Assembly: GCF_016545825.1 (NCBI RefSeq)
Contig: NC_052619.1
Span: forward strand, 33,829,803-33,893,802
Length of the DNA stretch: 64,000 bases
Source of the DNA: Eucalyptus grandis
Lineage: Eukaryota; Streptophyta; Magnoliopsida; Myrtales; Myrtaceae
Direction of reading: 5' to 3'
Under the pieces are notes generated by a model. The model did no database searches. It saw nothing but the letters and a program-made list of their open reading frames with translations, and was not told the origin of the DNA. Of this stretch, positions 15,100-55,725 are shown piece by piece (within the stretch, counting starts at the first letter, position 1; every line of letters starts with the position of its first letter). The position numbers and the translations under genes are program-made.

Positions 15100-15614
15100 T
15101 TGCTAAAACACGGGAACACTTAAAGTGCTAAAGTTACGAAAAATATATTGACTTTTTGTGAAAATGGGACACTCGAGTGTTAAGTCCAATGAACTCTATC
15201 GAAATCTTACGTGGCAATTTTTTTTATTAATATCAATTGCCTATGTGGCATGTCAAAGAGCTGAGTCAGCAAAGAAAATGTAAAATGACGTCGTTTTGCC
15301 TCTTTTTTGAATTTTAATATAAATATTAATTAAATTCTTCATCTTTTCAATAATTTAATTTAATTTAATTAATATTTATATTAAAATTCCAAAAAGAGGC
15401 AAAACAATGTCATTTTATTTATTTATTTATTTATCTAGCCACATTAGCATACAAAATGACATCGTTTTGCATTTGTTTTGTCGGAAAAATATCATGTTAG
15501 CATTGTAGGCGGATTTTCTCGCCATTGACATTTAATCGATTCATTTTATTCCGATTTTGGTATTTAAGTGTACCTACTTTTAGTACTTCCGCCCGTGCAA
15601 AGTTTTAACACTCC
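15100..15614. mobile_element. TIR element with long internal hairpin (family shared with 20611)
   Basis: The outer ends are loosely inverted: GCTAAAACACGGG on the left against the complement of GCCCGTGC...GTTTTAACA on the right. Inside, 15292-15346 and 15362-15416 form an inverted repeat with 55-base arms and few mismatches. The right end, reverse-complemented, resembles the left end of the element at 20611 (both have GTACACTTAAAT...AAAATGAATC). No coding capacity. The ends are approximate and no target duplication was identified. Confidence 0.55.
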
Positions 15615-20610: not shown

Positions 20611-21614
20611 TGCTAAAACTTGGCATGGGGCATACTTAATTGCCGAAAGTTTGGAAATGTACACTTAAATATTAAAATTGGAGCAAAATGAATCATTAAG
20701 TGTCAAAGACGAGAGATTCTAGCAAAAATACCGACCTTGTGTTTTTTTCAACAAGACAAGTGCAAATGACGCAAAAAATGTACGATGTGTTTTGCACGCC
20801 GACATGGCTAGACAAGTCGAAACGATGCCGTTTTGTACTGGTGACATGGCTAGTAAGTTGAAAACAATGTCATTTTGTCTCGAATTTGAATTTAAAATAA
20901 ATATTAATTAAATTAAATTTAAGACTAAGTTATTTATAAAAATAAAAAAGGAGATTGCATAACGATGAGGGTTGTGCAAGCCCTTGCTATTGCCTCCCTA
21001 CTGTCGTCGGGAAGGGCTGGCAATAGTGGAAGGAGGGTTGGTCGGGGTGGTTGAGGGTCGCGATCCTCCCTCAAATTCGGCCAAGGGCTGCCGCCTTGCT
21101 AGGGTGACCCCCAACTAGCAACAGCCCTTAGCCCAACCGGGCAAGGGCTCGGTTGGGCTAAGGGCTGATGACCCTTGCTTGGATTTGGGGTTGGGCCGTG
21201 ACCCTCTTCTGGATTTGGACAAGTGCTTGTAAGCTCTTGTTGCTAGTCGACCAGGATCACTGGCCCCCTAGTTAGGGCCCGGCAACCCCGACTGACCCTC
21301 CCCCTAGGATATAGTGGTGAGCGCTTGCATAGCCATTCTGCAATCTTTTTATTATTATTAAAATTAGTTTTAAATTTAATTTAATTTATATTTATATTAA
21401 AATTCAAATAAGAGGCAAAATAATATCGTTTTGGTTCTTCTTTCTTGACTCAACTCTCTGGCGAGCCATGTAGGCAACTTATATTATTAAAAATAAGTCA
21501 CGGAGGATTTCCGGTACCCTTCACCGGAGTTGGCGTTTTAATTTAATTTATATTTATATTAAAATTCAAATGTACATTTCGAAACTTTTGTCGTCCTCGT
21601 GCCAAGTTTTGGCA
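20611..21614. mobile_element. TIR element with GC-rich core
   Basis: The left end TGCTAAAACTTGGCATGGGG and the complement of the right end (TGCCAAAACTTGGCACGAGG) form TIRs that continue through GAAA-TGTAC. Inner AT-rich arms (about 20880-20930 and 21360-21415) are also inverted and resemble those of the element at 15100. The middle (about 20965-21310) is GC-rich with CAAGGGC and GGGTTGGTCGGGG phrases. It has no transposase. No convincing target duplication was found. Confidence 0.7.
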
Positions 21615-23047: not shown

Positions 23048-27520
<4,473 letters not shown>

Positions 27521-36462: not shown

Positions 36463-37192
36463 CATTTGATGGGAGAATTACCAAACAAATTATAAACATA
36501 TTATATTTATACCAATTCAGTCTTAAATATTTTAATTAGACCAATTTAGTCATAACCTTTTATAGTTGTGCTAACTAAGTCAATTTGTTCAATTTTGATC
36601 GAAGAATACTGATATGAATGCTAATCATCTTACGTGAAATGGCCAACATTGATGTGGACTATTTTAAATAGTATTTTAATATCTTAAGTTTGTTAATTTT
36701 TATTCTTTCCTCTTTTTTTTTTTTTTTTATAACTCTAGTCGGCAAGGTCACCAACCGACCACCGCTGGCCATATCTTGGCTAGACCAGGCAAGTGGCCCC
36801 CACCCAAATCCAAGCGACACCCTCGACGCCCTTACCTAGATTTAAGCAAGGGCCCGACACCCTTGCTTGAGGCTAGCAAGGGCACGGAAGCCCTCACCTA
36901 GACCTCGCCTATGGCTAGCGACCTCGTTGGCCAATAGATAGGGACAAAAAAGAAAGGAAAGAAAAAAGAAAGAAATAAAGAAAAAAAGTAGTTTTTTTTT
37001 TTCTAAAAGTTGTCCGTGTTAACGACAGCCATGCCACATAAAATGGCTAGCATTCACGTTAGAGATTTCCCACCAAAGATGGATTCAATTGGCACGAATG
37101 CAAAATATATAGGACTAAATTGGTTAATTGAAATACTTAAAACTGAATTGGCACAAATATAACTTTTTTTATTTTATTTTTCCCATCAGATG
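36463..37192. mobile_element. Mutator-like TIR element with GC-rich core
   Basis: The TIRs are long (over 100 bp): GGAGAATTACC... on the left against the complement of ...ATTTTTCC on the right, both with CCAATTCAGT and ACCAATTTAGTC. The candidate 9-bp target duplication CATTTGATG (36463-36471) and CATCAGATG (37184-37192) matches 7 of 9. Inside, a T-rich tract precedes a GC-rich core (about 36735-36940) with CAAGGGC phrases, followed by a purine tract (about 36945-36990). No transposase. Confidence 0.75.
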
Positions 37193-37459
37193 ACTACCGA
37201 TGTTAAACATGCATTTATTTCGCTTATGACACGTGAAATTTGTGACTTCCCAAGTAGATATGAGGGCAAGTGAACTCATTCAAAGTAGAATATGGCCATC
37301 TCTTAAATCTACAAATCTCCAAAAGATCAAGGCTTTATTCCCTAGAAAACCTCAACTTAAGATCTAATACCAATTTTACCCCAAACTTTTTTTGTTAAAA
37401 ACATCAAAAAATTTAACTATAATCCGTAATTATTTTCTCAAAAATTGCCACTAGATTCT

Positions 37460-38090
37460 TTGAAATTAGGGAAAAAGCTACGAAAAACCTTGAATTACCC
37501 AAAGTAACACATTTACCCAAAACTTTTTTTGTGACATGAATAACCCCAAACTTTTCAAATGGTGACACATTTAACCCATCAATGGCATTTTTCTTTTTAT
37601 TATGTTTTTTCATTTTTCCTTTTTTTTCTTTCTTTCTTCTTCTTCCCTCCGCCGGCCATGGCGAAGCCGGCAAAGGGAAGCCGACGTCGGGCGAGGGCCT
37701 CCCTCGCCGGATGCAAGCGAGGACCGCCCTCGCTGGTGTCGCGAGGATGGCCCTCGCCCGACGCAAGCAAGGGCAACCCTCGTCGGCGACGGGCGAGGAC
37801 GGCCCTCACCAGATCGGGCGAGGGTAGGGACACCCTCACCCGACGCCGGCGAGGGCCGCCCTAGCCCGACGCCAGCGAGGGCAACCCTCGCCCTCCACCG
37901 GCCAGTCAACGGAGGGAAGATAGAAGAAAAAAAATTTTAAACGGAAAGACCAAAATGCCCTATAATTTTGGAGTAAATGTGTTACGGTTGGCAAAGTTCA
38001 AGGCTTTTCATGTCACAAAAAAAAGTTTGAAGTAAATGTGTCACTTTGGGCAAAGTTCAGGGTTTTTTGTGGCTTTTTCCCTTGAAATTA
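37460..38090. mobile_element. Mutator-like TIR element with GC-rich core, perfect 9-bp TSD
   Basis: The element 37469-38081 has TIRs starting GGGAAAAAGC...ACGAAAAACC on the left and the complement of GGCTTTTTCCC on the right, over 100 bp long. It is flanked by the identical 9-mer TTGAAATTA at 37460-37468 and 38082-38090. Layout: AT-rich TIR, pyrimidine tract (about 37585-37650), core rich in GGCGAGGG and CCCTCGCC (37650-37905), purine tract, TIR. It encodes nothing recognised. Confidence 0.88.
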
Positions 38091-38397
38091 TTAATGTTAG
38101 CGCTAATTAGAGGTTCATTATAAGAACCAATACTGCCACCTTTGTATATAACAGCAATAGTCTACTAATATTGATAATTTTGAAGAAACTAGTTGCATTT
38201 TTTGGATGTAGGGTGGATTTGGAATCACAATGAAAGTTTGTGACTTTTTTAGACAACAAAATTCAAGACTAATTAAGATTGAACCTAAAATTAAGAATAT
38301 TTTTAAGGATTATCTAAGTAGAAACCTATGCAACATAAAGGTGGGTCATAATGGAAAATCATTAATCAAGGGCCTATGGGTTATCTTCTTTTTTGCT

Positions 38398-39373
38398 TTA
38401 GGGCACGTTTGGTAACACTTCTGTTTCCGGGAACAATTTCTTATTAAAAATGATTATTTATTATTATGTTCCCGAAAACAATTTCTAAGCATTTTAAGAC
38501 GTTTAATAACTGTCCAAAATTTTTATTATCGGAATAGAATTGCGTTTAGTACCGTTTTGAAAATTTTTAATCCAAATCATTTTTTAATAATTTTTTTATA
38601 ATTTTTTAATAATTTTATTACTTTCTTTTCTTTTCTTTCTCTTCTTCTTCTTCAATGTCTACCGGTCGCCAGCCTTGGGATGATCAATGATCAGCCAGAC
38701 AAGGGTTGACAACCTTGTCGGAGCATCGCCGACCCTCAACGAGGCCGTGCCTCGTTGACCGAGGCCGGGTGAGCGGCCTCGCCCAAATTTGGCAAGGCCA
38801 AGCTCGCCTAGCCGCCAATGAGGCTTGACCTTACCGAGCCACTGCAAGGTCGGCCTCGCTTGGCCAAAGTGAGGCTAACCTTGCGGTGGCCCGGCAAGGT
38901 TGAGTCCCGCCGGTGGCTAGGTGAGTTCGGCCTCACCCAGCCAGGCGAGGCTTGCCTAGCCACCATCAAGCTCGCTAGGCCTCACTGGACATCACCCTAG
39001 CCTAGCGAGCCTCCGACGAGCTTGTTGGACCTCACCCAATCGGTCGTTAGTGGCAAGCAACAGACGGCGGCGATTGACAATGATGGCGGCAACGGCAATA
39101 GTTGAAGAATAAGAGAGAGGGAAGAAGAACAAGAAGAAAGAAAAGAAAAGAGAAAAAATAGGTTGGCTTGATTCTAGAATTGTTCCTAGGAATAAATAAT
39201 CAACTTTTTTCTACTTCTCGATTCTGTTCCAAATCTACTTCCGAGAACAAAAAAAATATAAATTTGTTCCTGGAAACAAAAATTTTACCAAACGAATTTT
39301 TATTCCAAATCTACTCCTGAAAATAAAAGAATATAAATTTTCATTGTTTGACTGATCGCCAAACATGGTCTTA
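38398..39373. mobile_element. PIF/Harbinger-like TIR element with GC-rich core
   Basis: The element 38401-39370 has a left end GGGCACGTTTGGTAACA and a complement of the right end GACCATGTTTGGCGATC. It is flanked by TTA on both sides (38398-38400 and 39371-39373), the 3-bp duplication type of PIF/Harbinger. Inside there are pyrimidine tract, GC-rich core (about 38655-39080, many GAGGC and GCCTC) and purine tract (39105-39160). A 9-bp alternative matches only 6 of 9. No transposase. Confidence 0.65.
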
Positions 39374-40068
39374 GTATTATTATTATTTTTTTTTTTTATA
39401 CTTGACGAAGATATAATGCTAATCTTATATGTTAAATTAGTGGTCAAACGAATTTCCATATGTGAGTTAAGTGCACCATTTCGTAGGTGGAGAATGTTTT
39501 CCTTCATTCTTGGATGGAGAATGCTCTTTATTTTCTTTATTTTATTTAGAGAATAGGCATGAAAACCTGGTTATTTAAAGGTCCATAAAACATATGCAAG
39601 GGCCGCGAACACGTTAAGTGTAAGCTTATGGTTTATACAAATGATCCAGACCTAGAGTAGTTTGATTTCAATAAAAAAAAATTGATGGGCGGGTTATATA
39701 CATGGAGATTATCCACATATATTAAAAGTTGAATGTACGGGTAGATGAAACCCGGCAACGGGAAAAAAGATTAAAAAAAAATTATTCTTTAAGATAACGG
39801 TCCTCGTCATGGGGATGAGAATCATCCACTCGAAGTCCGTGGTGGATATGCTCCTCATTACCTGGTTGCCCCATCAAAAGAGTCAAAACTACAGTGTTGA
39901 CCAAAGTATCCAATACCCTGTCCGGCCGACGAGAGGAGATGAGAATGTCAATTAAAGCAGAGATCAAGGTCGAGATCAGCGTGCATTGATATGCATTGAT
40001 TATAGGGGGAAAACACTAGGAAGCTTCTTTTTTTCCATTGGCTTTTCAACTTTATTAGCTGGTCTATG
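39374..40068. other. AT-rich spacer between TIR elements
   Basis: No gene is supported. About 39780-39970 reads as a modest minus-strand open frame without recognised similarity. Confidence 0.45.
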
Positions 40069-41401
40069 CTTGAGTAGTGGGAAAAGTATAAAAAAAGTCT
40101 TAAACCTATTGCATTTGTACCGATTCAGTCCTAAACTTTTCAATTAGACCAATTCAATCATAAACATTTCAATATTTGTACCAATTCAGTCCATTTGACC
40201 AATTTTGGCCGGCTGGCGCTGACGTAAACATCGGCCAATGGCCGAACGCTGACGTGGCAATTTTTATGATTTTTTTTGAATTTTTTTTATTACTTTTTTA
40301 TTAATTTTTTTTCTTTTTCCTTTTAATTCCTGGCAGTGGCCAGCAAGCCTCCAGTGAGGCTCGTCGACCACTAGGTGAGGGCCATGAAGCCCTCACCTAC
40401 CGCTGGCGAGGGTCGTAACCCTCACCTGGCCTCTCCTAGGGTCGCCGGCGAGGCCAACCTCACCCATGGCTGGTGAGGCCATGGTGGCCATCGCCAAGGC
40501 GGAGGTGAGGGTTGCGAAGCCCTCGCCAGCTGCCAGTGAGGGTCACGATCCTCGCTCGGCCTTGTCCAGGGCCGCGAGCAAGGCGACTTAGCCTAGATCT
40601 AGGCGAGGCTAGCCTCGCCCTGGCCTTGCCGTTGAGTCCCGGTGCCTCCTCCATTGTCGACCTCAGAGCTTCTCGACCACGTCACCACCGTCCTCACCTC
40701 CACGAAATCCCAATTCGAGGCCCTGGTCCCCCACCTCCTACGCCTCACGCCGTCGCTCCTTCGCCCGATCTTCGCCTCTGAAACCCTAGCCCGCCGCCCC
40801 AACACCCTTCTCTCATTCTTCCAATGGTGCCAGTCCCACAACCCGTCCCTCGCCCGCTCCCTGTCCCTCCTCCTCTCTCTCCTCCTGCGGCAAGGCTAGC
40901 CTCACCCAAATCTAGGCTAAATTGCCTCACCCGCGGCCCTGGGTGAGGCCAAGCGAGGGTCGCGACCCTCGCCGGCCGCTAGCAAGGGCTTCGCGGCCCT
41001 CGCCTCCGCCCTGGCAATGGCCGCCATGGCCTTGCCAGCCTCAAGCGAGGCTGACCTTGCCTAGATCCAAGCGAAGCCACCTCGCCGGCGGCCTTGGGAG
41101 AGGCTAGGCGAGGGCCGCGACCCTCACCGGAGGCTTGCCAGCCACCACCAGGAAGAAAGTAGAAAAGAAAAGAAAAAAGAAAAAAAAATTCAAAAAAAAA
41201 ACATAAAAATTGCCACGTCGGCATTCAACCACCGGCCAACATCCATATCAACGCCGACCGGCCAAAATTGGTCGGATGGACTGAATTTGTATCAATATTA
41301 AAATGTTTAGGATTAAATTGGTCAAATTGAAAAGTTTAAGATCGCATTGGCACAAATACAATAGGTTTAGAACTTTTTGGGTACTTTTCCCCTCGAGTGG
41401 T
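40069..41401. mobile_element. Mutator-like TIR element carrying a captured gene fragment (Pack-type)
   Basis: The element 40079-41391 has TIRs of about 190 bp: GGGAAAAGTA... on the left and the complement of TACTTTTCCC on the right, sharing CCTATTGCATTTGT-like, GTCCTAAACTTTTCAATT-like and ATTTTGGCCGG blocks. Flanking 10-mers CTTGAGTAGT (40069-40078) and CTCGAGTGGT (41392-41401) match 8 of 10. The core (about 40330-41150) is GC-rich with repeated GCGAGG and CCTCGCC, preceded by a T/C tract and followed by an A/G tract. Within it lies a segment of different character (about 40640-40890) that codes for a PPR-protein N-terminus. Confidence 0.78.
40642..40890 (+). pseudogene. captured N-terminal fragment of a pentatricopeptide-repeat (PPR) protein
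   Basis: A frame without its own ATG reads through STSELLDHVTTVL...VPHLLRLTPSLL...RRPNTLLSFFQWCQSHNP...SLSLLLSLL. This pattern (helical start, TPSL, then RP-TLLSFFQW-QSH) is typical of the region just before the first PPR motifs in plant P-type PPR proteins, which act on organelle RNA. Only about 80 residues are present, with no 35-residue PPR repeat. Base use and lack of CGAGG repetition differ from the surrounding core. It is a fragment, probably not functional. Confidence 0.55.
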
Positions 41402-42944
41402 TAATCGTAAAATCATTAATCTCTAGCGATTCTTGTTTGCTTTTTCGACCTTTTTGCCTTCTTTAGTTTGTCCTCTCCTCAGAGTCCGGCCACGTCGTCG
41501 TTTCAGAAGTTTTCTCTTTTGGATATTTCCACTTGCGCGTCGGCTTGGCCTGTTCAGTGCTGGATGCAATACTATCATGCTGCATTTGTCATTAAGCACT
41601 TCATGATTGAGTGGAACTCCACTTGGAAGATGCGGCATAAGTCCCTAAAGGTTTCGTTTAAATAAATTCAATCATTTTGGACCGTTCGCGCTCTCGAGCA
41701 GAATATTTATAACAATCGTGAGATCCTTATGATAATATTTAGAGCAAGTTGTTAACACTCATTGCCCTTCCCTATACCTTTACTTATCAAAGAGGAAAAA
41801 AGAAAAACTCTCAAATTCTCTCAAGAAACGCTCATATATCGAGAATAACATTACTTTTATAGCAACGCGCTTTACGAACAAATCTTAATCCAGAAGCTGA
41901 ATCACCTCACTTCTCTCAACAACATTATGTTTATCTTCTTATTTAAGCTCAATTTGTTTAACGGAAAATGAATAATTTAGAAATGATTTTTGTATCGCTT
42001 AAAATAATGGGTCAATAAAAAATGTTTTAATTATTGACGATAATTTATATCTGAATATTTTCGTGAGTGGAGAAAAATATTTTTCGTTCATTTATTTTTG
42101 TAAGACACAAATAATCGTTTTTAAGAAAAATATTTCTTAAATAATTTATTTTCTACAGAATAAACAGAACATTAATCTTTATTTTACATATTTTTCTTTT
42201 TCTATAGGTAAATATTGATGACACGTTCTGTGACCGGTCAATGCGACACGTTAGTATGTGCAGGAGTTGTTCCCACGAGCACTATGAGATGCTCTGCCTT
42301 TTGGCCAAATTTGACTTGGAAACACGGTCGAGACAGAAAGCTTCATGGGTCGGCTGAGCACCTGCGAAGATTCTGGAACATCATATATAATTAGCATCAC
42401 CACATGTTGCATGCGAATATTGTTCGATTCCTAACTTATCAAATACTCAAATCAGAATCTATACTTGCCGTGGGATTGACATATAATGTCCCGAGTGGGT
42501 TGACTCGTACTTGCTTCTAACTGCACTTACTTTGGCATTAAAGCATGAGCCATTTTAAATTGGAGGACGAGAACCACCGCTCTTCAAAAGTAGCATCTTG
42601 TCGGCATACTGTCCAAAAATATCAGAATCCTCATTTTTATACAAACTCATGTTAAATAATTCCAAACACGTATTTGCTGAGAACTCACTACTTACTGTAA
42701 AATAAAGAGCTAAGAAATTTTATATTAACTATTGTTTCGCCAAAAAGTGCCAACGAAAACCTTTCGTGATTGATGTGGAAATCCACAAAGTGTATGATAT
42801 TGCTTCTTCTTTTTTTTTTTAAATAAATTCTTTGACAAAAAAGAAACAAAATTGATGAGAAAATTAAGGGCGTTCGTGATACCTATTATATTTCTCCGTT
42901 TTTGTTTTGTTTTGTTTTTTTTTCTCAGAAACAAGTTTGAAACA
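41402..42944. other. intergenic sequence with one copy of a diverged local duplication
   Basis: About 42230-42720 resembles 48030-49090 (shared CTTGCCGTGGGATTG, GAGT-GGTTGACTCG-ACTTGCTTC and TTACTT-GGCATTAA). No protein is recognised. About 42552-42560 (ATTTTAAAT) is an empty site matching the insertion site of the element at 48268. Confidence 0.6.
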
Positions 42945-43957
42945 TAAGGGCATGCATGGTAACACTCCAAAAAGTGTTTGGAACATTTTGTACTTTTTTG
43001 TTCGGGAACAAAAAAGAACAGAAACGCGTTTGGTTGCGTTTCTGTTCTTTTTTTTTTTTGTTCCGGAACAAAATTGGAGCAAAAAAGAAACACAAAAAGT
43101 TGCTTCTTCTTCCGAAACAATTTTGAAGAAGCGTTTTTCTCTCTCTTCTCTTTTCTTCTTCTTTTCTTCTTCTTTTTTCTTCTTTTTTCTTTGGCCGGTC
43201 GCTTGCCTCGGCCATGGCGACACCGGCCGTCGAGGACCGGCGATGCCGTCGAGGGTCGGTGACCTCGCCGGAGCGTCGCCGACCGGCGAGGCCGAGCCTC
43301 GCCCGCGCCGGCGAGGCCGAGCTCGCCTAGCCGGGGACGAGGCTCGGCCTCGCTCGAGGGAGATCTTCGGCTAGGGTTACGGCGAGGGCTCCGGAGGACG
43401 GTGTGCGGCAGCGCGGCACTAGAGGCTTCGGGATCGGGACGGCGTCAAGCTGCGGGCTTCGAGGCGCAGGTGCTCGGCCCGACGGCGGGCGGCGAGGCTC
43501 GGCCTCGCCCGCGCCGGCGACACCGAGCCTCGCCTTGGGGGGCGAGCTCGGGCTCGCCAGATCCGGCGAGGCCGAGCCTCGCCATGGCTGGGCGAGCTCG
43601 AGCTCGCCCGAGATCCGGCAAGGCCGAGCCACGCCCAGCCACGGTGAGCCTCGCCGTGGCTGGGCGAGGCTGTCGGCCCCATCGGCCGATCGCGGAGGCC
43701 GGCGACCGGCCGAAAGAAGAAAAAAATAAAAAAGAAAGGAAAAAATGGAAAATAAAATCAAAATATTAAAAAATTAAAAGAAACAAAAAAAGAATAAAAA
43801 TTTACCAAACGTGTTTCTACTCATTTTTTATTCCCGGAACAAACGTTACCAAACACGTTTTTTTGTTCAAAACCGTTCCCGGAACAAAAACACTTTTTTT
43901 TTATTTCTATTCCCGGGAACAAAAAAAGAAACAGAAATGTTTCCATGCAGGGCCTAA
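42945..43957. mobile_element. PIF/Harbinger-like TIR element with GC-rich core
   Basis: The element 42948-43954 has a left end GGGCATGCATGGTAACA and a complement of the right end GGCCCTGCATGGAAACA. It is flanked by TAA at 42945-42947 and 43955-43957. Subterminal GGGAACAAAAA and TTCTGTTTC blocks are repeated in both arms. A pyrimidine tract (about 43135-43195), a very GC-rich core with GGCGAGGC and GCCTCGCC (about 43196-43705) and a purine tract follow in order. Long open frames in the core are by-products of its repetitive GC-rich sequence. Confidence 0.72.
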
Positions 43958-44039
43958 ATCTATTTAGTAATACAATTTATTTTTCTTATTTTGAGGATAA
44001 ATTTTGTGCTCGGAAAGAAGTGAAAACTTTTTCATCGCT

Positions 44040-44900
44040 CACTCCCTCTATCTCCTGCATGTTCTCCCATGAGAAAACCATCTTCCTCCTCCCTGAGACT
44101 CTCCCAATCCTAAACCCCCATATTGGCTCCCGCCTCCTTTGCCCCCTCCGATCCCTCTGCCTCCGTCGCTTCCAGCAGCGGCTACTACACCTCCACCTCC
44201 TTCCCCAAGCTCTCCTTCGACACCCGCATCGGCATGGGCACCTCCTCCCTCTCCAACAACACCTCTCTCTTTGACTTCCACCACTCCCTCCCGGACAATC
44301 CCATCACCTACGACTTCTCCGAGCTCCGCTCTGCCGCCAACAACTTCCTCGTCAAGCCCCGCTACTCCTCATCCTCATCTTCCTCATAGGATTATTCCTT
44401 ATGCGGCAAGGACATCATCATCTTCTAGGCAAGTTCAGGCTTAAGATCGACATGGGTAGCCTCAAGAACCTCCTCGGGATGATCTACTGGAGCCTCCTAG
44501 TTACCATCACAAAGCTACTCAGCGCCTCTATCTCCGACGACAACATCTTCTTCGTCTATGAGTCCATCGACAGCGCCAGCTTCTCCAATCGCTTGCGGAA
44601 CCCTAAAATGCCCAATTTCACATTCCTCAAGACTAGAGGTCGAGGATGCAGATCATCGCCGACGTCTCACACAACCTTGATTCCATCCACAACAACATCA
44701 GCCTCAACATTATTTTCGTTCACAACCACATTAAGAGTAGCACCATCATGGTGAAGGAGTTGTCATTCAAAGCCAAGATCTTCGACTTCAAGACCGCCTA
44801 GCTGTGCAGCAAGTGAGACGAGAACAATGTGCTCCGAGAGCAGGCAGGTCTAGTGAAGGGCAGCAATGACATCAAGGACGAGAGGGTTGGAAATTATATG
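44040..44900 (+). pseudogene. possible LysM-type receptor-like kinase remnant
   Basis: Readable pieces: a Ser-rich juxtamembrane part followed by SLPDNPITYDFSELRSAANNF (44123-44389 frame), then LLSASISDDNIFFVYESID...LRNPKMPNFTFL, then in another frame MQIIADVSHNLDSIHNN...FVHNHIKSS and an in-frame stop after FDFKTA. The order matches the N-lobe and catalytic-loop region of plant receptor-like kinases, and the wording resembles LysM-RLKs, where HNHIKSS replaces the usual HRDIK. The ectodomain, the C-lobe and a continuous frame are missing. The subfamily assignment is from memory and uncertain; a kinase-like remnant is more secure. Confidence 0.5.
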
Positions 44901-47810
44901 TTGTCATCTAACAAGTTCTTATTTCAGAAACAGAAATTTTGTATCGTTATCAGTTATGGCCAAATGCTCAGAAACTCGTCTAGGGAATAGATATTGAAAA
45001 ATCTATTTGAGGCTAGAAATGGTGCTTGAGAACATAATTGTTATCATTCATGCCTCAAAAGTACAAAAACCGTAGGCAAAATTGTCCATCTATGTAAAGG
45101 AGTATTGAAGATGTAGAGATAAAGTGAAAGTAAAACTAAACAATTGGCATTGGGCATGAATTACAATTCCGGTGTTTACAGCATTTATTGATAGTAATGA
45201 TTACAAATAAATCAATGCATTCTCCATGACTCCTAGAATTTAGTATCAAGTATCTACAAACAATTAATCAACACATAGAACAACTCGGGGATTAGCAAGA
45301 GTGCCATAACTTTCGTACGATGCTTACTTGAGAGCCGTAACTTTTTTACCTCACTTGAGTGCCATAAATTTGAAAAATTGATCGCTTGAATGCCATTGAC
45401 GATTTGCCTCTTCGAAAAATCCGACGTGGCATTAAAATAAATTAAACCATCGGACAAGGAATGCAAACAAGCTGAAGTGAGTAATTTGATGCTGAACAAC
45501 ATCATAGGACTCATTGAATTAAAGAATCGCAAGCTTACTTCAACAAATAGGGGAAAAAAACCAATTATCTTGAAGAACCCTAATCACAAACCTTACCAAA
45601 CCCAAGATTTCCAATTCTTAAAATTAGGGCATTTGTATAAGGGAGATTCAAGAATGAAAATCCAAAGAGATATTTATCGAGTGTTACTTATCTTGTTATT
45701 GTCAGGTTTGGTCTAGTTTGCGGGCATATATAACCTTAGTAATGAGAAAAAGTCATTGGATCTACCATAGTTGCAAGAACAATGAAATGTGTTGTTGTAT
45801 TTAGAGCAATAAATGTTAGTTCATGGAATGTTTTTATACTGGAATGTTGTTACTTTTGACAATTCTTTGTATATAATTGAATGGCTTGGTTTGTGATTAC
45901 CTGAATGGATTAAATGACGATATATGGTTGATTTGGTGGAAAATGGTGTTTTATGATGCAATTTTTGCATTGTTGTTGGTTTATATAAATGATAGATGGT
46001 TTGCAATTTGCACTACAGTTTCTGAAGTTGAGGAAACTAAGTTGTAACTTTTAAAAAGTTGATGAACCTAAATGCTTACTTAAAAAATATATGGCACTCA
46101 AACGATCATTTGTAGAAGTGACCACTTGGGTTCATCAATTTTTTAGTAAGTGTTGGTTTCACTTTCTCAAACACATCTTATAGTAACTTAAGCAGGATTT
46201 CTATTTCTCTTTCTTATCATTATGTAATAGCTTATAAGAAGTATTATTCCACAGTGCCATCAACCTTGGCATGAGTTCACACCAAATAGCATTGCATTTA
46301 TACCAAATAGCAAAAATATGCTTGCACCAGCAATCATATTCTCTTACATCAGTATTAGGGCGATGTTCTTACATTTAGACCGAACAACATCGTAGATAAA
46401 CACAAAAGCAATTAAAAAAAAATGCAACAGTAAAATCAAACACCTATTAATATTATTGTTAAACACATCACCAGCCAAAATGCAACGATAATAGAGTTTC
46501 ACCTTCACCTAACAACAAAATCCTAAACATTTCGCCTAATAGAAGAAACATAAACAGATAGCCCCTCCTATCCTCCCATTAGTCAAGTTGAACAACCTGG
46601 TGACTTCCTTTTTTATTTTATTTTATGGGATCTTCATATGATTCATGATCCTTGCACTCTTCAGAATGGGAACTATAGGTACATTTTTCACTTGTATTGC
46701 TTTTCCCACTGTTTTATCTTTTGGAAGATGCATTCTTTTGCCTAGAGCTTCACGTCTTTTGGTGTTGTCTCTTGTTGAACTTCCTGTGTTTGGTCTTGGC
46801 GCTATGGCTGTAGGTTAAGATTAATGTATAGTGATATTTCCAGGATCATTTGATTGAGATGGAGCTAATGTTTAGGTCTTTTTTGGTGCGTGTTTTTGAG
46901 ACGTATTTTCTACTCTTTATTTCGGAGCTGCCATTAGTTGATTATTAGATTATGCTCGAGTTACCATTTATTGGTTTATTAGTGCTTGCTTTTAGCTTTC
47001 TGGTTCTAGGTGCAACCGATTCTTGACTTCATCTTCATTGAGATATCAGCACATCTAAACTTCTCTCGGGCTATAACCATATAGCCTTGTTTGGTTACCA
47101 TGTTAACCAAATGACATAAATTAAATGCATAACACCTAAATAACTTACATTCAAAATCGTCATGCTGGTATTCATGTCTCTAAAAAATCCATGGTCACGT
47201 TCCCTTATCCTTTTCACAATATCCACCATGTGCATATTGTGGTGCAAAATTTTGAGTAATCTCTTCACTAGCTCTTTCTTCTAACCTACAATATGACATA
47301 ACAAAATGAAGTTAACGCACCAAAAAGTACATACAACGACAATAACCACAACAAACAGCTTACTTGACATTATTTCCTCTATTATCTGACATTCAAGCCA
47401 CATGTAAACCACGTGGATTCTATCATGACAAATCTAACTTCAAGTAAACAAAATTATGGTCGTGGAGCCAACGGTGTTGGAATTTTAATGTAAGGACTAC
47501 ATTGATTATATTTTTTATAGTTCAAATACAAGATGAAACAAAAACAAAAGTTGAGGGACCTATTGACACCTAAATTTTCTCCAAATTTTTATTTTTACAT
47601 AATCCCAAAAAAAAAAGTTTGAACTTAATTTCTCCTAAAAATAAATTTCATTATAATGTTGCTTTCTTCCATTTTAAATTACTTAGTGATTTAGGAGAGG
47701 TTCTAAAAAAGTGGGATTAGGTTTTTCTGGAATTTATTCCTAACAAAAAATGAAGGGGAAAAAGGTGAAAAAGAGGATCATCATCGTTCATGCAGCTTGT
47801 TATTTGCACG

Positions 47811-47877
<67 letters not shown>

Positions 47878-48267
47878 TCTGGGTTTTTTTTTTTGGGGGT
47901 ATAGATTCAGAACCAATACCATATATAACAAGGTAGTGTAAAATCATGGGATGATTTAAATATATATATTGGGGGTCCTGATTATCTTATTTTAATAGGT
48001 CAAAGCAGTCATATCCGACATATGGTGAATACAACTAATAAATGATGACATGTAATATAACCGGCCAATACAACAACATGTTCTGTGATAATAATCTAAA
48101 CCTCACTATCATTAATATGGTATGCAAAGGAGTTGCTCCCGCGACTCATAAAATACTCGATCATAACTGATACTTGCCATGGGATTGGCATATATTATCC
48201 TGAGTGAGTTGACTCGGACTTGCTTCAACTGCTCTTACTTCGGCATTAAGGATAAACTCTTTTAAAT
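44901..48267. other. intergenic, repeat-derived sequence
   Basis: About 45285-45440 and 46020-46150 carry inverted-looking phrases (GAGTGCCATAA against TATGGCACTC), so another decayed TIR element of roughly 0.9 kb may lie here. No gene is supported. Confidence 0.4.
47812..47876. repeat. (TTA)n microsatellite
   Basis: About 21 uninterrupted trinucleotide units. Any open frame across it is a repeat by-product. Confidence 0.95.
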
Positions 48268-48881
48268 GGGAAAGTGGTACCAATGGTCTTTAAATTTTGG
48301 ATCAACATAAAATGTGGCTTCCAATTAATTTGTTAAATTTTGGATCAACTGCTCTTACTTCAGCATTAAGGATGAGCTCTTTTAATTTGTTAAATGTGAT
48401 ATTTGAACTATTAATAAATATTCAATTTAGTCACTAAATTATATAAAAATATTCAATGTCGTCTTTTTGTGAATTTCGAATTAATGGAATATGTTGATGT
48501 GGCTTCCGATCTGTTAAAACTTGGATGGTGGACAAAAAAAAAAAAAAGTTACACATGCGTCTACTAATTAAGATATCCATTTCAAATCACGATATAATGA
48601 TTCATGTCATCATATAATGATAGACATGTTAACGGTCTATTTTTTTTTTTTTCAAATAGATAGATAAAAAGATAGATGACCCATTATTTTTAAAAATCCA
48701 ATTTAGCATATAATGATCCACATCATTAAAAAATGTATGATTTTCGTTTGACCAAACAGAAAGACTACATTGAACATTTATTAATAGTTCGGGAACTATA
48801 TTGAATAAATTAAAAATTCAAAGACACATTGGATGTTAAGTCAAAATTCAAGAACTATTTGTCTCATATTCCATTTTTAAT
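48259..48881. mobile_element. MITE-like Mutator-type element with a paralogous empty site
   Basis: The element 48268-48872 has a left end GGGAAAGTGG and a complement of the right end GGAATATGAG. The arms pair through TTTTGGATCAACAT and TTTTGACTTAACAT-like blocks. Flanks CTTTTAAAT (48259-48267) and ATTTTTAAT (48873-48881) each differ at one base from the unoccupied paralogous site ATTTTAAAT at 42552-42560. No coding capacity. Confidence 0.75.
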
Positions 48882-50714
48882 TGGGGGACAAGAATCCCTC
48901 TCCAAATCAACACATTTGTTCAAACTAAATAGTAGCATCTCTTCGGCATCTTTTCATCTTCGTTCTGCAAACAATTAAAGTCTCACTTTCACACAATACT
49001 AGTGCCAAGTAATTCCAAATATACATTAGATAAGAATTCACTACCTACTGTCAAGTCAAGAGCTTGACATTTTGCGTTGACTTTGACGAAATAAGTAGAC
49101 GAAACATCGCCAACTTTTTTTTTTTTTTTTTTTGCTCGATATGATGATAGAAACAGTTCCACCAAAAGTTAGGGAAATGCAGTGGATAAGAATGCATCCA
49201 GCGCAAAACGGATCAAGCCCAACTCGGAAGTGGAGATATTGAAAAATACAAAGAAAAAAAAAAAGAAAAAGAGGTCAAAATCGACGAAGTCATGGGACCA
49301 CGCGGAGAGAGGACAAACTAAAGAAGGCAAAAGGAAGATGAAAAGCAAGCAATAATGTTGCTGCAGATTTAACCATTGGAAACATGATTGACGACACGAG
49401 CAAAATCCAACGAATAATCTGGAAAGGCCATGAAAAGGGGAGAAGCTTCCTAATTTTTTTTCCATATCCAAGGCATGTCGATTTCAACCGAGATCTGCTT
49501 TAATTGACATGCGTCTCCTTTCCTGGCCCAGACAGAATATTTGATAAATTGGTCTACTCTATATGTATGACGCTTTGATGAGGTAACCAGGTCATAAGAG
49601 CATCTCCACCTAGGATTTTGAGGGTCCCTTTTTTTTTCCTTTTACGACGACTCATTTAAAAGAGCAATATTTTTCTCAAATCACTAGTTGGACATCATTC
49701 ACATGTAATTTAACTTATAAATATATATGTACAATGTCCATGTTTGGAGCCCGCAAATCAGAAGACTGATAAAATTCTCACAAATTGCATGCTGGACCAT
49801 CTGCATAGGCCTGTGGCCTGGCTTCAATCCATTCATGGGGTTTGCAGGATTTTCCATGAGCCTCTAGGTCTCTACACTCATGCCCTGGATTATGAAAAAA
49901 AAAGCATTCAACTAAGAGTAAAGAGAAATATTGTCCTATTGCAAAAAAATAAATAAATTAAAAGATAAAGTATGTTATTGAATAGAAGAAAAAGTTTAGG
50001 TACTCAATTGTAAAAAGGAAAAAAGTTAGGTATTTACCCCTAAACACTAGAGTAAACCTGCAACAGGTCAAAATGTTGGATGGTTAAATTAAATGTGCCA
50101 CTAATCAATAGGTGGTGATTGGGATGATTTCAATAAAAAGGTTATGTCAATTGGGAATTAATTCTAGGGTGACGATATGGATGATCCTTTAACCATCAAC
50201 GTCCACATGTCCATTACACTCTATCACTCTCTCAGCAGCCGAAGTCTCAAAATGAGCGGCAACCTCAGTAACAATTTATGGTAATGGGTGGCATTGTCAA
50301 ACTTTTTGTGGGATTTCTGATTCTTGCCATTGTAATTTCTACAAATTAACAAAACGTGTCTCAGTACACATGCCAAGAACATGTTTTACTGAAAAGTGTC
50401 GATAAAATATCTCTAAAAAATGTGGATCGATTGATATAAACTAACAAAGGTTATGACGGTTTCTTAATTGATTATTGAAAGGTAATGTAAATGGCGAGAC
50501 AATTAAGGGTACTAAGACTGTGAACAATGCCAACCATGTAAAATTTATTAGATATGTAAAGATCAACTGATAGTAAAGATGAATGCTTGGGTGTTTTTCA
50601 ATTGATTGTCAACTCCACTATTCCACAGGTTGCGTTGACCAAATTGTTGACTACAACACTCGGACACTTTTTGGTGTCAATACAAAGCATTTAAGTTTTA
50701 ATCCTAGTTGATTT
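48882..50714. other. intergenic sequence without a supported gene
   Basis: The second half of the diverged local duplication ends near 49090. The rest shows only short open frames, a T run near 49113-49131 and AT-rich sequence. Confidence 0.45.
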
Positions 50715-50860
50715 GAGCAGTAACTTGATAAGATCATATGCCAACGCGAACGAAGTCGTCATTTACAAATCTACCTCCGAAAGCCGCGAGCAGTAACTTG
50801 ATAAGATCATATGCCAACTCGAACGAAGTCGTCATTTACAAATCTACCTCCGAAAGCCGC
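50715..50860. repeat. perfect-period tandem duplication, 2 x 73 bp
   Basis: Units 50715-50787 and 50788-50860 differ at one base (CAACGCG against CAACTCG). The duplication is recent. Confidence 0.92.
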
Positions 50861-52200
50861 CAAATTTCGAAAGCGTGAATAAAGATAAAGGACATCTAGT
50901 TCAAAGTTGATGGGTCCCTCGTCCATGTTTAATTTTTCAAGTACTCCTGATCCACCAAGATTCCAATTATCAAGACGACTCTTGGGCCATCAAGAAGTTC
51001 GTCGCTTGAAGTTGCTGCTGCCGTCATGGCTCGGGGCATCAAGTCACCATGTCGCGTCAGCTCTCTGCCGTGCCACAAGGTCTCCATTGCCGGAGCTTGC
51101 TGCCCCGTCCTCCCTTCTCCCCCTTTCAGAGCCCTTGCCTTATCAAATTGGAATCGAGTCAACGTCACAGAGATTGTCAGAGAAATTAAATTGCTGCTTA
51201 GAACAAAAACCACCATCCACCGTCCTCGTAGTGTGGTCCTCGTTTGCTGTCTTCTCTAGCAAGATCGTTTCCGTTGACAATCTATTTTGCTATTTCCGTG
51301 GAAGTCGATCACCCATGTTGCTCCTTGTCTACAAAATCTAGTGCAGCTGCTCGCGGTGTCATCTTTGCCTCAAACCATTTAGTAACCAGTGTTGCTATCA
51401 CTCTGTGGCTGCATTGATCCGAGTAGAATCGGACCAAGCGGTGCCGTCGTAATTGATTCTTCAAGCTGGCCACATCTCACCACACCTATTCTTGTCAAGG
51501 CAAAACACGATATTGTTCCCAAAATCCTCTAGAAATTGGTCCGGTCTATTATATTGGCAATCTCGAGTATGGGGTTTTTGACTTAAATAGACTTTTCCGC
51601 AAAAGTTCGGGTATCAATATTGGGTAAAGGAGCATAAAGAAGCAAATCGATCTTATACTCAATTTCTCTGAAGAGAGGCAATTTTCATGTGGGAAATCCA
51701 TAGAAAAAAATACTTTTAAACTCATCCATCAGAGGTTGCATTTTTTGGTATTGAGGTCTCTCTATCTCACTTTTGTTATTTCTAATCATTAGGATAGCAA
51801 AAACATTCTAGTTATAAATGACTCTTGTAATATTAGGCTAGTGGGCCCCAAAAGAAGAAAAATGAAAAGAAGTTGAAAAGTCAATAAAGCGGAAAGGAGG
51901 GGGGAGAGTGCTCGGCTAAATAGAAGTTGAGAGGTCCCACGACTAGAAAGAAAAGAAAAAAAAAGAAGAAAGAAGAAGAAGAAGAAGAAGAAGAAGAGAA
52001 AGGGGAAGAAAGGAAAGGGGTTTTGGCACATGCACGCCACGGACGCCTCGCCAAGCCGACTCGACTCCATAACGCAGCACCTGGTAATAGATTAGGCCCC
52101 TCGTTCATCCAATTGAAGTAATTTATGGGTTTAGGGCTCAAATTCGGAATTTTTGAAAAATCAAGTGGCGAAGTCCAATTTTGGAGTCGTTGAGCCGCGT
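50861..52200. other. intergenic sequence with a GA-rich tract
   Basis: A purine tract dominated by AAG units lies at about 51945-52020. No recognised gene. Confidence 0.4.
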
Positions 52201-53646
52201 ATTTTTGTAGGAATGGTAGTTTAGGGTGTTGTGCCATGGGATTTTACGGATCGTGATTTGAGCTTATGGTTTGTCTGAAACAAAATTTCAAAGTTTTCTG
52301 CGTGCAGTGAACAATACGCGTCCAACAGCTTTGGGACCGTCAAGTTGGGATTCTTCTAATATGTGTCAAGGGTTCTCTATTGACTATAAGTACGTTCGGA
52401 TCGGGGTTCGGAGGAAAAAGTTAAGGCACAATCAAGTTTTGCGCTTTAACTCTGTGTGCAAATGACTTGAACAATCACCTTAGTTATGTGATTTGTTAGC
52501 GCGTAGAAGTCCTTTTGGTAGAATTAAGGCATAATTTAGTTTTTTCATAGTTGAAATAGAGTTTTATTATATTTTAACATTATTCATCAGTTATTTGATA
52601 GGGTTGTGAGTTCAACGATATGAGTATCGTTTGTTGTTTGGTCATAGACAATGAAGTGAGTAATACTATATCTTCTTTGATTTTATAAAAATCATGTCTT
52701 GAAGTATATATATATGTATATGTATTGAATCGAGAATGGCATTTTTATTGCATAAAAGCCGGATCGAGCAATTGCTACTCTTTGGTTGATTGTGGATATT
52801 TGAAAAGCATATTATACAAAGTCAGTGGATAAATATATATGAAATTGCTTTGCGAATGATTTATGGAAATGTTTATGATGATTTGAGAAATGGATATGAA
52901 CTGGATGATGGGCTATGCTGCAAATGTTATTTGTTTGATTTAAGATATTGATTTCTAGATTGGATTTCTGGTATTGGAAAATGGTTATTTATACTCAATA
53001 TGACTATGAACCCAGTGAGGGGTTTTTGGGGTATGCATATCAGGTTTAGGATATCATTCTGAGCCCAACCATCAGTTTTGTAGGTGGAGACCTTGCCAAG
53101 GGGAGAATCTTGGTCGTTTTGTCACAAGGCATTGTGTTGTGACCATAATTAGTTATTGAGCAAAAGATTAATCGATGGATAGACCATCGACGTGTGGTTG
53201 ATATGAGATGAATCAATAGATAGATCATTGATATGTGTTTTTGATGGAGATTATTCAATGGATTTGACCATTGATACTTGACTTTTGATGGCAATTTAAA
53301 TGAGTTTTCCACATTAGTATAAAGCTTTGATGATAAGAAATAACTCTTATATGATTCGATATGTATTTTATAAATTGAGTTGGCATTATGAAGTTTGGTA
53401 TTACTTTGTATACATGCATAGTGATTATTTGATCTGCTTAGAAGATATGTACTACTCACTGAGCTTGTAGTTGCTCACTCATTTATTTCCAAACCTTTTC
53501 AAGTCCTTTGGTTAGCAGCTAGTAGGTCAAAGAGTGCTATCGATGGGGACATTTGGAAGTGGACTTTGGGTTTGGTTTAAGGCTGCGTCCTTCAGGTGGA
53601 AGGACGGCTGTGTTACCACCATCCTTGTAGGATTTGGGGTGTGACA
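52200..53646 (-). repeat. probable Ty3/gypsy LTR (3' LTR of the element at right)
   Basis: Read on the minus strand it begins TGTCACACCCCAAATCC, a typical start of plant gypsy LTRs, and is preceded by a purine tract, GGGTGAGAG. It includes a GAGCAACTACAAGCTCAGTG-like segment common in such LTRs. The far end is not fixed; 52200 is an estimate. Confidence 0.5.
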
Positions 53647-54059
53647 ACTCTCACCCATGTTTCATTCAAGAATAGATTTTCCTTACTAATGTTTCCTTCC
53701 TAGGTTGATTGTTCGAGATCGGGGAACACACCTAAAAGTGCAAGGGTAATGAGTTTCTAATCATTATGAAATGACTTTAAGTGTTCTTAGCCCATCGTAT
53801 ATGGCTTTTCTATCAAGTTTTGGGGCCTCATGTGACATGCAACCATTCACATAAAACAATATCTTGGTAATTTTTCCCAATTAAAAATGATATCAGGGCT
53901 TGCTTAGTTACTTAGAGATCGTTCCCTTTGTTCAAGCACTGCAACTTGTGTGGTTTGGAATGCTTGGGAAATCAGTAGTTTCAACTTGTGCATTAGAGTT
54001 GACAAGTCTCCTTCATCTGCCTATTCCTCGATAGCATCTTGCTCTCATAATCAGACTCA

Positions 54060-54940
54060 ATTTGATCGAGGTATGAGATAGCTTCTTAGAGCCTCATACC
54101 AATCTTCTTGATTTCTTGAAGGGCCATAACCTTTTGATTAGGGCAATTAGCTTGGAAGTGTCCACTGCCTTGGCACTTGAAGCTTTCTACTTCTGGTTTT
54201 AGATTTTTTTGGGAAGCCCTTTGACAAACTTCATAACCCTTTCTTTTCCTTTTTCTTCTGTCAAAGGCTTTTTGGTCTTACTAGAAGAAGCACCCTTAAA
54301 GAAGGATATCCTCTTTGATAAAGGTTTGGCCGAAAAAAGATTGACACACTTCAGTTGTTTCTACACTTTCATGCCATTTTGTAAACATCTTCAAATAACT
54401 AATATGGTTGAAGTTCATCCAAATTGACCATCTCTATGTTTATACCACTAAGGAATGTGCAATGGTCTAAATCTTGCATTTCAAGAACATCACACCTCAT
54501 AAAGAATTGCTCAAATCCCCTAGTATATTCTTCAATACTCATTCCATGTTGCTTGAGGGAATTTAGGTTAAGAAACAAGTCTTGTTTGTAGTTCTCTAGC
54601 AAGGACCTTTCCTTCATAAGTTTCTTAAGCTTTTCCAAGATTTAATTGTTCCTTTTCTTCCCTAGTTCTTTGATTCTTTAGGTTTTCTCACCAAAAGAAA
54701 GCATACTTCTTCAAACTTGAGGATAGCAACCTTGTATCTCTTTTTGTCCTTGTATGAGTGGAAGTCAAATACTCGTTGAGCAACATGTAGCCAATCCACA
54801 AAGCCATTTCGATTAAGGCTACCCTCAAATTCGATGCCTTTACTTTGATCACAGATCATTCTCCTCATGCCTTCTTTTTCTCCTCCTAACTCCGTAATAT
54901 GAATCGGTAGAGTTGCTTCTAGCATCATTTGATTCATCCC
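54060..54940 (-). pseudogene. Ty3/gypsy gag fragment
   Basis: Minus-strand pieces read FVDWLHVAQRVFDFHSY, then EKLKKLMKERSLLEN and GMSIEEYTRGFEQFFMRCDV, and a CCHC zinc knuckle CFKCQGSGHFQANC near 54180-54140. This is the usual gag order of chromovirus-type gypsy elements. Protease, reverse transcriptase and integrase are absent between this and the LTR at 53646, so a large internal deletion has occurred. A Mutator-like element lies just upstream. Confidence 0.7.
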
Positions 54941-55019
54941 TAGAGTTTAGATAAGGATTTGTATCGTCACGGCATGGTCAATTAACAAGAGGTCTCTCTA
55001 GATGCTTTTGTCTCATATG

Positions 55020-55725
55020 ATTCTCCTCGGGAAAATTGCCAAAAAAATCCTAAAATTATTGTAATTTTTCCAATTCAATCTTAAACTTTAATTCAATCCA
55101 TCGATCAAATTTGGCCTTGTCAACACTAACATGAACACCAATTGGCATCGGTGGATAATTTTTATTAATATTTTATTATTTGAATTTTTATATTTCCTTT
55201 TTTTTTCTTTTTCTTTTTTTCCTTCTCCCTCCTTATTTCTCTTGCTTCACGATCGGCTAGAGAGGAGGACCAATCGTCAGCCAGTGGTCAGCTTGCCTCA
55301 CCATGATTGGGCAAGGGCAAGCTCACCCAGCCACTAGTGAGGTGAGCTCCCACCAGATCTAGCAAGGGCTCGCCTCGCTAGTGGATAGCAAGGCCAACCT
55401 TGCCCATGTCCGGTGAGGCAAGCCCTCGCTAGTTGATTGGCGAGGGCGAGCTCGCCATTGGCATCAACCGACGCTCCCTCGGGCGATGGCTAGAGAAGGG
55501 GAAGAATGAGAGAAGAGAAAAGGAAAAAAAGACAAAAAATAAAGACAAAAATTCAAATAAAATATTATTAAAAAATTATCCGCCGACTAGTTAAATTTGA
55601 TTGGATTTGCTGAATTTGCACAATTACAGAAAAATTAGGACAGAAATTGATTAAAAAAAGATTTAGGACTGAATTAGAAATTATAATAGGTTTAAAATTT
55701 TTTGATAATTTTCTCTATTTTCCTC
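55020..55725. mobile_element. Mutator-like TIR element with GC-rich core
   Basis: The element 55029-55716 has a left TIR GGGAAAATTGCCAAAAAAAT and a complement of the right end GAGAAAATTATCAAAAAATT, continuing through CCAATTCAATCTTAAA. Candidate 9-bp duplications ATTCTCCTC (55020-55028) and ATTTTCCTC (55717-55725) match 8 of 9. The interior has a T/C tract (55196-55240), a core with CAAGGGC, GCGAGG and CTCGCC phrases (55250-55490) and a purine tract (55495-55550). Confidence 0.78.

What the first reader, a model, noticed from the sequence alone, without database searches (positions are those of the whole stretch)
36463..55725. One internal design shared by two TIR transposon superfamilies
Six elements (starting 36472, 37469, 38401, 40079, 42948, 55029) have the same layout: AT-rich TIR, pyrimidine tract, GC-rich core of GCGAGG/CCTCGC words, purine tract, TIR. 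Four have 9-10-bp flanking duplications (Mutator type) and two have 3-bp TTA or TAA duplications with GGGC...TTTGG ends (PIF/Harbinger type). Unrelated ends with the same kind of cargo suggest a module that moves between transposon families, or strong convergence. The tracts are always T/C on the left and A/G on the right, so they extend the hairpin stem. Such mirror-rich, GC-skewed DNA could form triplex or R-loop structures. No transposase is present in any copy.
Basis: partly seen in the sequence, partly recalled or inferred. Interest (0 to 1): 0.8.

Follow-up and report, generated by a model that had tools for sequence, protein, structure and literature searches.

The report
Unrelated transposons sharing one repeat core
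In a stretch of Eucalyptus DNA, small transposons with unrelated ends carry related insides, a decayed array of short GC-rich palindromes, which suggests that this filling passed between transposon families.

Summary
The window is Eucalyptus grandis nuclear DNA or very near it. The six elements are real; ends, duplications and layout are nearly as described. All six cores are enriched in GCGAGG/CCTCGC-type words (0 of 500 shuffles each).

Do cores align across unrelated ends? Yes for the best pair: the cores of Harbinger-type E3 and Mutator-type E6 are reciprocal best matches in the window (nhmmer 3.8e-10, 1.9e-9). Controls did not reach this: words fixed and spacers shuffled 0 of 200 each way, unit order permuted 0 of 150. 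Ends do not match across superfamilies at E<=1 (12 queries). Convergence is therefore unlikely for E3/E6.

Repeated exchange is not shown. With transitions forgiven, E3 matches E5 of its own superfamily better (126 versus 117.5), so E3-E6 closeness is partly parallel CpG decay. Best reading: a homologous minisatellite core passed at least once between TIR families, probably by template-switching repair. Direction, number of transfers and function are open. No genome-wide copies could be fetched, so the core-tree test is undone.

The parts
36472..37183 (.). E1, non-autonomous element, Mutator-type ends family a; TSD 7 of 9
36738..36945 (.). E1 GC-rich core (word-rich, no regular period)
37469..38081 (.). 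E2, Mutator-type ends family b (no hit to family a at E<=1); TSD 9 of 9; imperfect palindrome over its whole length (66%, E 2e-38)
37648..37918 (.). E2 core, 26-bp period array
38401..39370 (.). E3, PIF/Harbinger-type ends, TTA duplication
38660..39110 (.). E3 core; reciprocal best match of E6 core
38776..38934 (+). stretch of E3 core colinear with E6 55294-55455
40079..41391 (.). E4, Mutator-type family a, TSD 8 of 10; inverted arms 40080-40619 x 40889-41390 run from the end through the core (73% over 544 columns)
40633..40890 (+). E4 non-palindromic loop, C-rich, coding-like GC3; possible captured gene fragment (not confirmed)
42948..43954 (.). E5, PIF/Harbinger-type ends, TAA duplication
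43194..43708 (.). E5 core, 25/26/49-bp units by TRF, highest GC (77%)
55029..55715 (.). E6, Mutator-type family a, TSD 8 of 9
55250..55500 (.). E6 core, word spacing 26, 25, 26, 25, 27 bp
55294..55455 (+). stretch of E6 core colinear with E3 38776-38934

Best explanation
The six elements are non-autonomous TIR transposons of three end families (two Mutator-type, one PIF/Harbinger-type) that carry a related, strongly decayed core: a minisatellite of ~25-26-bp units, each a small GC-rich hairpin (GCGAGG...CCTCGCC) with a spacer, entered through a pyrimidine tract and left through its complement. Shown: ends unrelated across superfamilies; E3 and E6 cores related in sequence and unit order. Inferred: the core passed at least once between families when repair or replication, stalled in this palindromic GC array, switched template to a like array in another element (gap filling or fork-stalling template switching); the same kind of step could make the inverted halves. 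Each family would then be moved by its own transposase acting on its ends. No host function is needed.
For: nhmmer with the E3 core: best match in the window outside E3 is E6 (34.1 bits, 3.8e-10); reciprocal 33.2 bits, 1.9e-9. Controls: Markov-3 shuffles of E3, best 15.9 bits in 60; words kept in place and spacers shuffled, best 14.3 bits (0 of 200) for E3 and 18.5 (0 of 200) for E6; E3 unit order permuted, best in E6 24.1 (0 of 150). Smith-Waterman: E3-E6 is the top of 15 pairs, 0 of 500 in both nulls. With transitions forgiven, 5 of the 8 pairs between superfamilies (E3-E6, E5-E6, E2-E3, E2-E5, E4-E5) have 0 of 200 Markov-2 shuffles at the observed score; 2 of these 5 (E3-E6, E5-E6) also have 0 of 200 with words fixed. 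Best scores of the six cores against 19 other GC-rich 300-bp windows are 42.5-64.5, against 117.5 for E3-E6; four of those six best scores come from window 21001, inside a seventh element. Ends: 12 queries, no hit in the other superfamily at E<=1. Inverted arms run from end through core in E2 and E4. E1-E3 lie within 2.9 kb and E4-E5 in the next 4.6 kb, so templates were near for these.
Against: Only six copies, one locus; and E6, the partner of E3, lies some 16 kb away, outside the cluster. With transitions forgiven E3-E5 (126; 145 matches, 60 transitions, 10 transversions) beats E3-E6 (117.5; 114, 43, 12), so the raw E3-E6 closeness is partly parallel CpG decay; the share of transversions is not informative (7.1% against a mean of 8.6% in 100 shuffles). 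Weak pairs between superfamilies: E1-E5 63, E1-E3 5 and E3-E4 2 of 200 Markov-2 shuffles reach the score; with words fixed, E1-E5 29, E2-E5 12, E2-E3 5, E1-E3 3 and E4-E5 1 of 200; E1-E5 (39.5) and E1-E3 (49) do not exceed the GC-rich controls. E2 resembles the others mainly by words and register: with words fixed, 27 to 257 of 500 shuffles reach E2's five strict scores. The period is not established for E1 and E4, and E3's rests on word spacing alone. Breakpoints of exchange were not searched for. Harbinger assignment of E3/E5 rests on 3-bp duplications and recalled end motifs, and the E3-E5 end link on one good match (2e-5).
Confidence: 0.6

Rival explanations
1. Independent capture from one common source: each end family separately picked up the same abundant GC-rich minisatellite or gene-derived sequence (Pack-TYPE acquisition, which favours GC-rich DNA), without exchange between transposons.
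For: [quoted passage not shown] Pack-MULEs of rice and maize prefer GC-rich sequence (PMC3310237 passage). E4 has a distinct non-palindromic loop, so elements here may capture DNA.
Against: No free array was seen in the rest of this window: outside the six elements no 500-bp bin holds more than 5 such words; the rest of the genome was not searched. Colinear unit order of E3 and E6 would need capture of the same piece twice.
Confidence: 0.25
2. Convergence: GC-rich palindromic DNA inside hairpin elements slips into short hairpin repeats by itself, giving similar words in unrelated elements.
For: E2 matches others mostly in words and register; E1 and E4 show no regular period. That hairpin units favour slippage is general knowledge, not tested.
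Against: Spacer sequence and unit order are shared between E3 and E6 (0 of 200, 0 of 200 and 0 of 150). Other stretches of the window hold few such words.
Confidence: 0.1
3. One family only: the 3-bp and 9-10-bp classes descend from a single element whose ends diverged beyond recognition, so a shared core is simple descent.
For: Same layout and tract orientation in all six; 3-bp duplications are weak evidence (P 0.13 each).
Against: Ends are still alignable within class (E1L-E4 1e-16, E6R-E4 8e-8, E3R-E5 2e-5) but not between superfamilies at E<=1.
Confidence: 0.05

Closest known systems
Pack-TYPE / Pack-MULE / Pack-TIR elements (PMC8903248, PMC13317346, PMC8277862)
   Same: Non-autonomous TIR elements of several superfamilies with foreign interiors; origins proposed there are hybrids of closely spaced elements, gap filling, and fork stalling with template switching.
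   Different: The interior here is a decayed palindromic minisatellite, not a recognised gene fragment, and it is shared between end families. Only E4's loop looks like captured gene DNA and that is unconfirmed.
SIRC, short interrupted repeat cassettes of Arabidopsis MITEs (PMC10342631)
   Same: Short direct repeats (10-29 bp, 2-8 copies, some with small palindromes) separated by spacers inside MITEs; like repeats occur in MuDR, Helitron and Gypsy elements, and recombination between mobile elements is suggested there.
   Different: SIRC spacers are diverse and low-copy; here spacers and unit order are shared between E3 and E6. Units are GC-rich, imperfect and near-palindromic.
Foldback elements such as Tetris of Drosophila virilis (PMC4079207, abstract and outline only)
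   Same: Long inverted arms containing internal tandem repeats; E2 and E4 arms run from the end through the core.
   Different: Tetris repeats are ~220 bp; here 25-26 bp, and the core is shared by different end families.
MULEs with multiple or tandem TIRs (PMC3310237, passages)
   Same: Duplicated terminal stretches, as near the right end of E3.
   Different: Concerns ends, not a shared interior.

Membership tests
Mutator-like elements (E1, E2, E4, E6) | 9-10-bp target site duplication | tested here: met
   7/9, 9/9, 8/10, 8/9; chance 0.014, 0.0001, 0.005, 0.0014
Mutator-like elements (E1, E2, E4, E6) | long terminal inverted repeats | tested here: met
   E1 72 columns 82%, E2 whole length 66%, E4 544 columns 73%, E6 71 columns 73% and 80 columns 80%
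Mutator-like elements (E1, E2, E4, E6) | moved by a Mutator-type transposase | not testable with these tools
   no autonomous relative could be fetched; the own-genome search did not complete
PIF/Harbinger (E3, E5) | 3-bp TWA target site duplication (rule recalled) | tested here: inconclusive
   TTA/TTA and TAA/TAA present, chance 0.13 each
PIF/Harbinger (E3, E5) | end motif GGGC...TGG typical of Tourist-type elements (recalled) | tested here: inconclusive
   GGGCACGTTTGG and GGGCATGCATGG seen; the motif is recalled, not searched
Pack-TYPE elements | captured gene fragment between TIRs | tested here: inconclusive
   E4 loop has coding-like GC by codon position (0.63/0.49/0.80) but all three frames have one stop each, and the protein search scored none of 486 candidates at E<=0.001
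Foldback elements | long inverted arms made of short repeats | tested here: met
   for E2 and E4, and E5 in part (67% over 209 columns); E3 has only a local palindrome in its core (73% over 139); no inverted match in the cores of E1 and E6
SIRC | direct repeats interrupted by diverse spacers inside a MITE | tested here: inconclusive
   25-26-bp register in E2, E3, E5, E6 to differing degrees but units imperfect and spacers shared between E3 and E6; SIRC software not run

The most novel reading that the evidence does not exclude
The core is a selfish minisatellite that hitch-hikes on unrelated transposons: its hairpin units stall repair or replication and cause template switches, which copy it into other TIR elements, so it spreads across superfamilies without a transposase or ends of its own.
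Probability: 0.25. Interest if true: 0.8.

Novelty: new variant of a known kind. Interest (0 to 1): 0.5.

Why it matters
A 2026 review says that DNA transposons may capture sequence by an alternative, yet undiscovered mechanism (PMC13317346, section 4 read). A recognisable, related core inside elements with unrelated ends would give a natural tracer: breakpoints between core and ends could show how often and by what junctions transposon interiors swap. It would also caution repeat annotation, since clustering by interior would merge different superfamilies.

Tried and rejected
Rejected: 'E3 is closer to E6 than to E5'. True for plain scoring and nhmmer, but reversed once transitions are forgiven; kept only as evidence of homology. 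Rejected: GC skew as a sign of R-loops. Rejected as proof of gene capture: the open frame in E4's loop, which I first thought PPR-like from recall; no protein match and the other frames are as open. A first spacer-shuffle control (best 34.5 bits in 150) had not excluded E3's own locus; I repeated it with E3 excluded.

Led nowhere: long permissive alignments contain much gap noise, though E3-E6 still ranked first by z. The protein search with an E5 core frame scored none of 6388 candidates at E<=0.01. A Mutator-end pattern in viral contigs found 0.

Literature: paper searches on Eucalyptus elements and on capture or shared interiors showed no title or abstract opening about this core. Several lists were capped (15 of 31, 15 of 33, 10 of 12, 10 of 25, 12 of 115), most subscription journals are not in that library, and I opened 7 papers. 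This is no proof that it is unpublished.

Cores were cut by eye. For E4 the loop 40641-40887 was left out and the two core arms joined; it was kept, and the arms were used apart.
Full report
What the DNA is. An exon at 26635-27282 (-) has the Alliinase_C domain, and 100 residues of it match EUGRSUZ_H02519 of Eucalyptus grandis at 100%. The window is thus from E. grandis or a very near relative.

The elements. By nhmmer of both ends of each against the window, E1, E4 and E6 form one end family, E3 and E5 a second, E2 a third. Of these 12 end queries none hits the other superfamily at E<=1 (full lists). E6's link to E1 is weak (0.008 at best) but to E4 good (8e-8); E3-E5 has one good match (2e-5) and otherwise 0.2-1. 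Target site duplications are 9-10 bp for E1, E2, E4 and E6, imperfect in three of them, and 3 bp for E3 and E5. The superfamily names rest on these and on recalled rules; no transposase is at hand to confirm them.

The core is a degenerate minisatellite. Words of the GCGAGG family exceed shuffles in all six cores (0 of 500 each). Tandem Repeats Finder reports a 26-bp unit in E2 (37691-37814, 37826-37893) and 25-, 26- and 49-bp units in E5 (within 43487-43638), and no such unit in the cores of E1, E3, E4 and E6. Word spacing in E6 is 26, 25, 26, 25, 27 and in E3 52, 25, 25, 51. The strongest lag is 26 in E2 and 51 in E6 (0 of 200 Markov-2 shuffles reach it); in E5 it is 10 (2 of 200), with 25 third; in E1, E3 and E4 the strongest lag is within shuffles (85, 33 and 52 of 200). 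The number of word pairs 24-27 bp apart is reached by 5, 5 and 4 of 500 Markov-3 shuffles for E2, E3 and E6, by 77 for E5, and by 151 and 89 for the two E4 arms; taken as a fraction of all pairs it is 5, 108 and 21, then 24, then 139 and 60. E4 mixes spacings such as 21, 25, 31 and 42. So the array is clear in E2, E6 and E5, visible in E3's word spacing, and not established in E1 and E4. Each unit is nearly its own reverse complement (unit list).

Inverted halves. E2 aligns with its own reverse complement end to end (66%, E 2e-38) and folds as single-stranded DNA at z -20 against 20 shuffles. E4 has arms of 544 columns at 73% from the end through the core, around a 269-bp loop. In E4 the terminal arms (229 bp) and the core arms (173 bp) are both 79% complementary in ungapped form, which fits one inverted duplication of ends and core together. 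E5's core arms match at 67% over 209 columns; E3 has a local palindrome; E1 and E6 show inverted ends and tracts but no inverted match in the core.

Core homology across superfamilies. Plain Smith-Waterman ranks E3-E6 first of 15 pairs (score 59, 90 identities in 109 ungapped columns), above the four within-family pairs. nhmmer agrees: E3->E6 34.1 bits, E6->E3 33.2 bits, next E5->E3 26.3 bits; but E3->E5 is only 6.2 bits. Nulls: 60 Markov-3 shuffles best 15.9; words fixed and spacers shuffled 0 of 200 in either direction; unit order permuted 0 of 150. So similarity goes beyond shared words: spacer letters and unit order are shared.

The correction. E3 and E6 are both decayed (GC 0.61 each; CpG observed/expected 0.81 and 0.60, against 1.16 in E5 and 1.01 in E2). 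Parallel CpG loss makes decayed copies look alike. With transitions nearly neutral, E3-E5 scores 126 and E3-E6 117.5. Both have 0 of 200 shuffles of either kind at that score. E3-E6 also exceeds the best score of any core against 19 other GC-rich windows (64.5). Hence homology of these two cores across superfamilies stands, while the claim that E3's core is nearer to a foreign family than to its own does not. Of the 8 pairs between superfamilies 5 have 0 of 200 Markov-2 shuffles at the score, and 2 (E3-E6, E5-E6) 0 of 200 in both nulls. Under strict scoring, within-family and between-family pairs overlap (mean z 4.6 for 4 pairs, 3.2 for 11, the latter counting E2 as a family of its own). This is compatible with old common ancestry with or without exchange.

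Mechanism. The literature offers template switching in gap filling or at stalled forks for TIR elements that take up foreign DNA (PMC8277862, passages) and hybrid formation between closely spaced elements (PMC13317346, section 4). The five clustered elements (36472-43954) and the hairpin-rich core fit both; E6 lies outside the cluster. These steps are inferred. A direct host function (triplex, R-loop, regulation) has no evidence here.

A seventh element. 20861-21432 has other ends (arms 81% over 103 columns) and a GC-rich core; a short relative with like ends and no core lies at 15281-15417. With transitions forgiven its core is like E1 (0 of 300 shuffles) and E4 (2 of 300), less like E2 (8), and not like E3, E5 or E6 (156, 49 and 86). 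Under strict scoring the counts are 17 (E1), 228 (E2), 6 (E3), 7 (E4), 273 (E5) and 7 (E6). It has 4 words (14 of 500), and nhmmer finds no other core below E 0.68. It is a lead, not evidence.

What I read. PMC10342631: outline, abstract, first part of Results, Discussion. PMC13317346: outline, abstract, section 4. PMC8903248, PMC8277862, PMC3310237: passages. PMC4079207, PMC9168764: abstract and outline. All others: search listing only.

Noticed in passing
window 20861-21432: A seventh TIR element with a fourth kind of ends and a GC-rich core (20960-21345) without a left pyrimidine tract; weak core similarity to E1 and E4.
   Followed up: partly
window 15281-15417: Short element with ends like the 20861 element but no GC core: a with-core and without-core pair of one end family.
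   Followed up: partly
window 39227-39340: Near the right end of E3 a 39-bp stretch (39227-39265) recurs 76 bp further on (39303-39340), a partial duplication of the terminal region.
   Followed up: partly
window 44919-45054: The left end region of E3 matches this non-element stretch (nhmmer 6e-5) better than any stretch of E5 (0.6 at best), on the minus strand; nature unknown.
   Followed up: no
window 40633-40890: Loop of E4 is C-rich (skew -0.54) and coding-like in GC by codon position; parent gene not found.
   Followed up: partly
window 1070-2787: Four tandem 443-bp copies, 83% matches, in a stretch whose frames look LRR-like by eye.
   Followed up: no
window 51945-52020: 76-bp purine run that matches the tracts of several elements in BLAST.
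   Followed up: no
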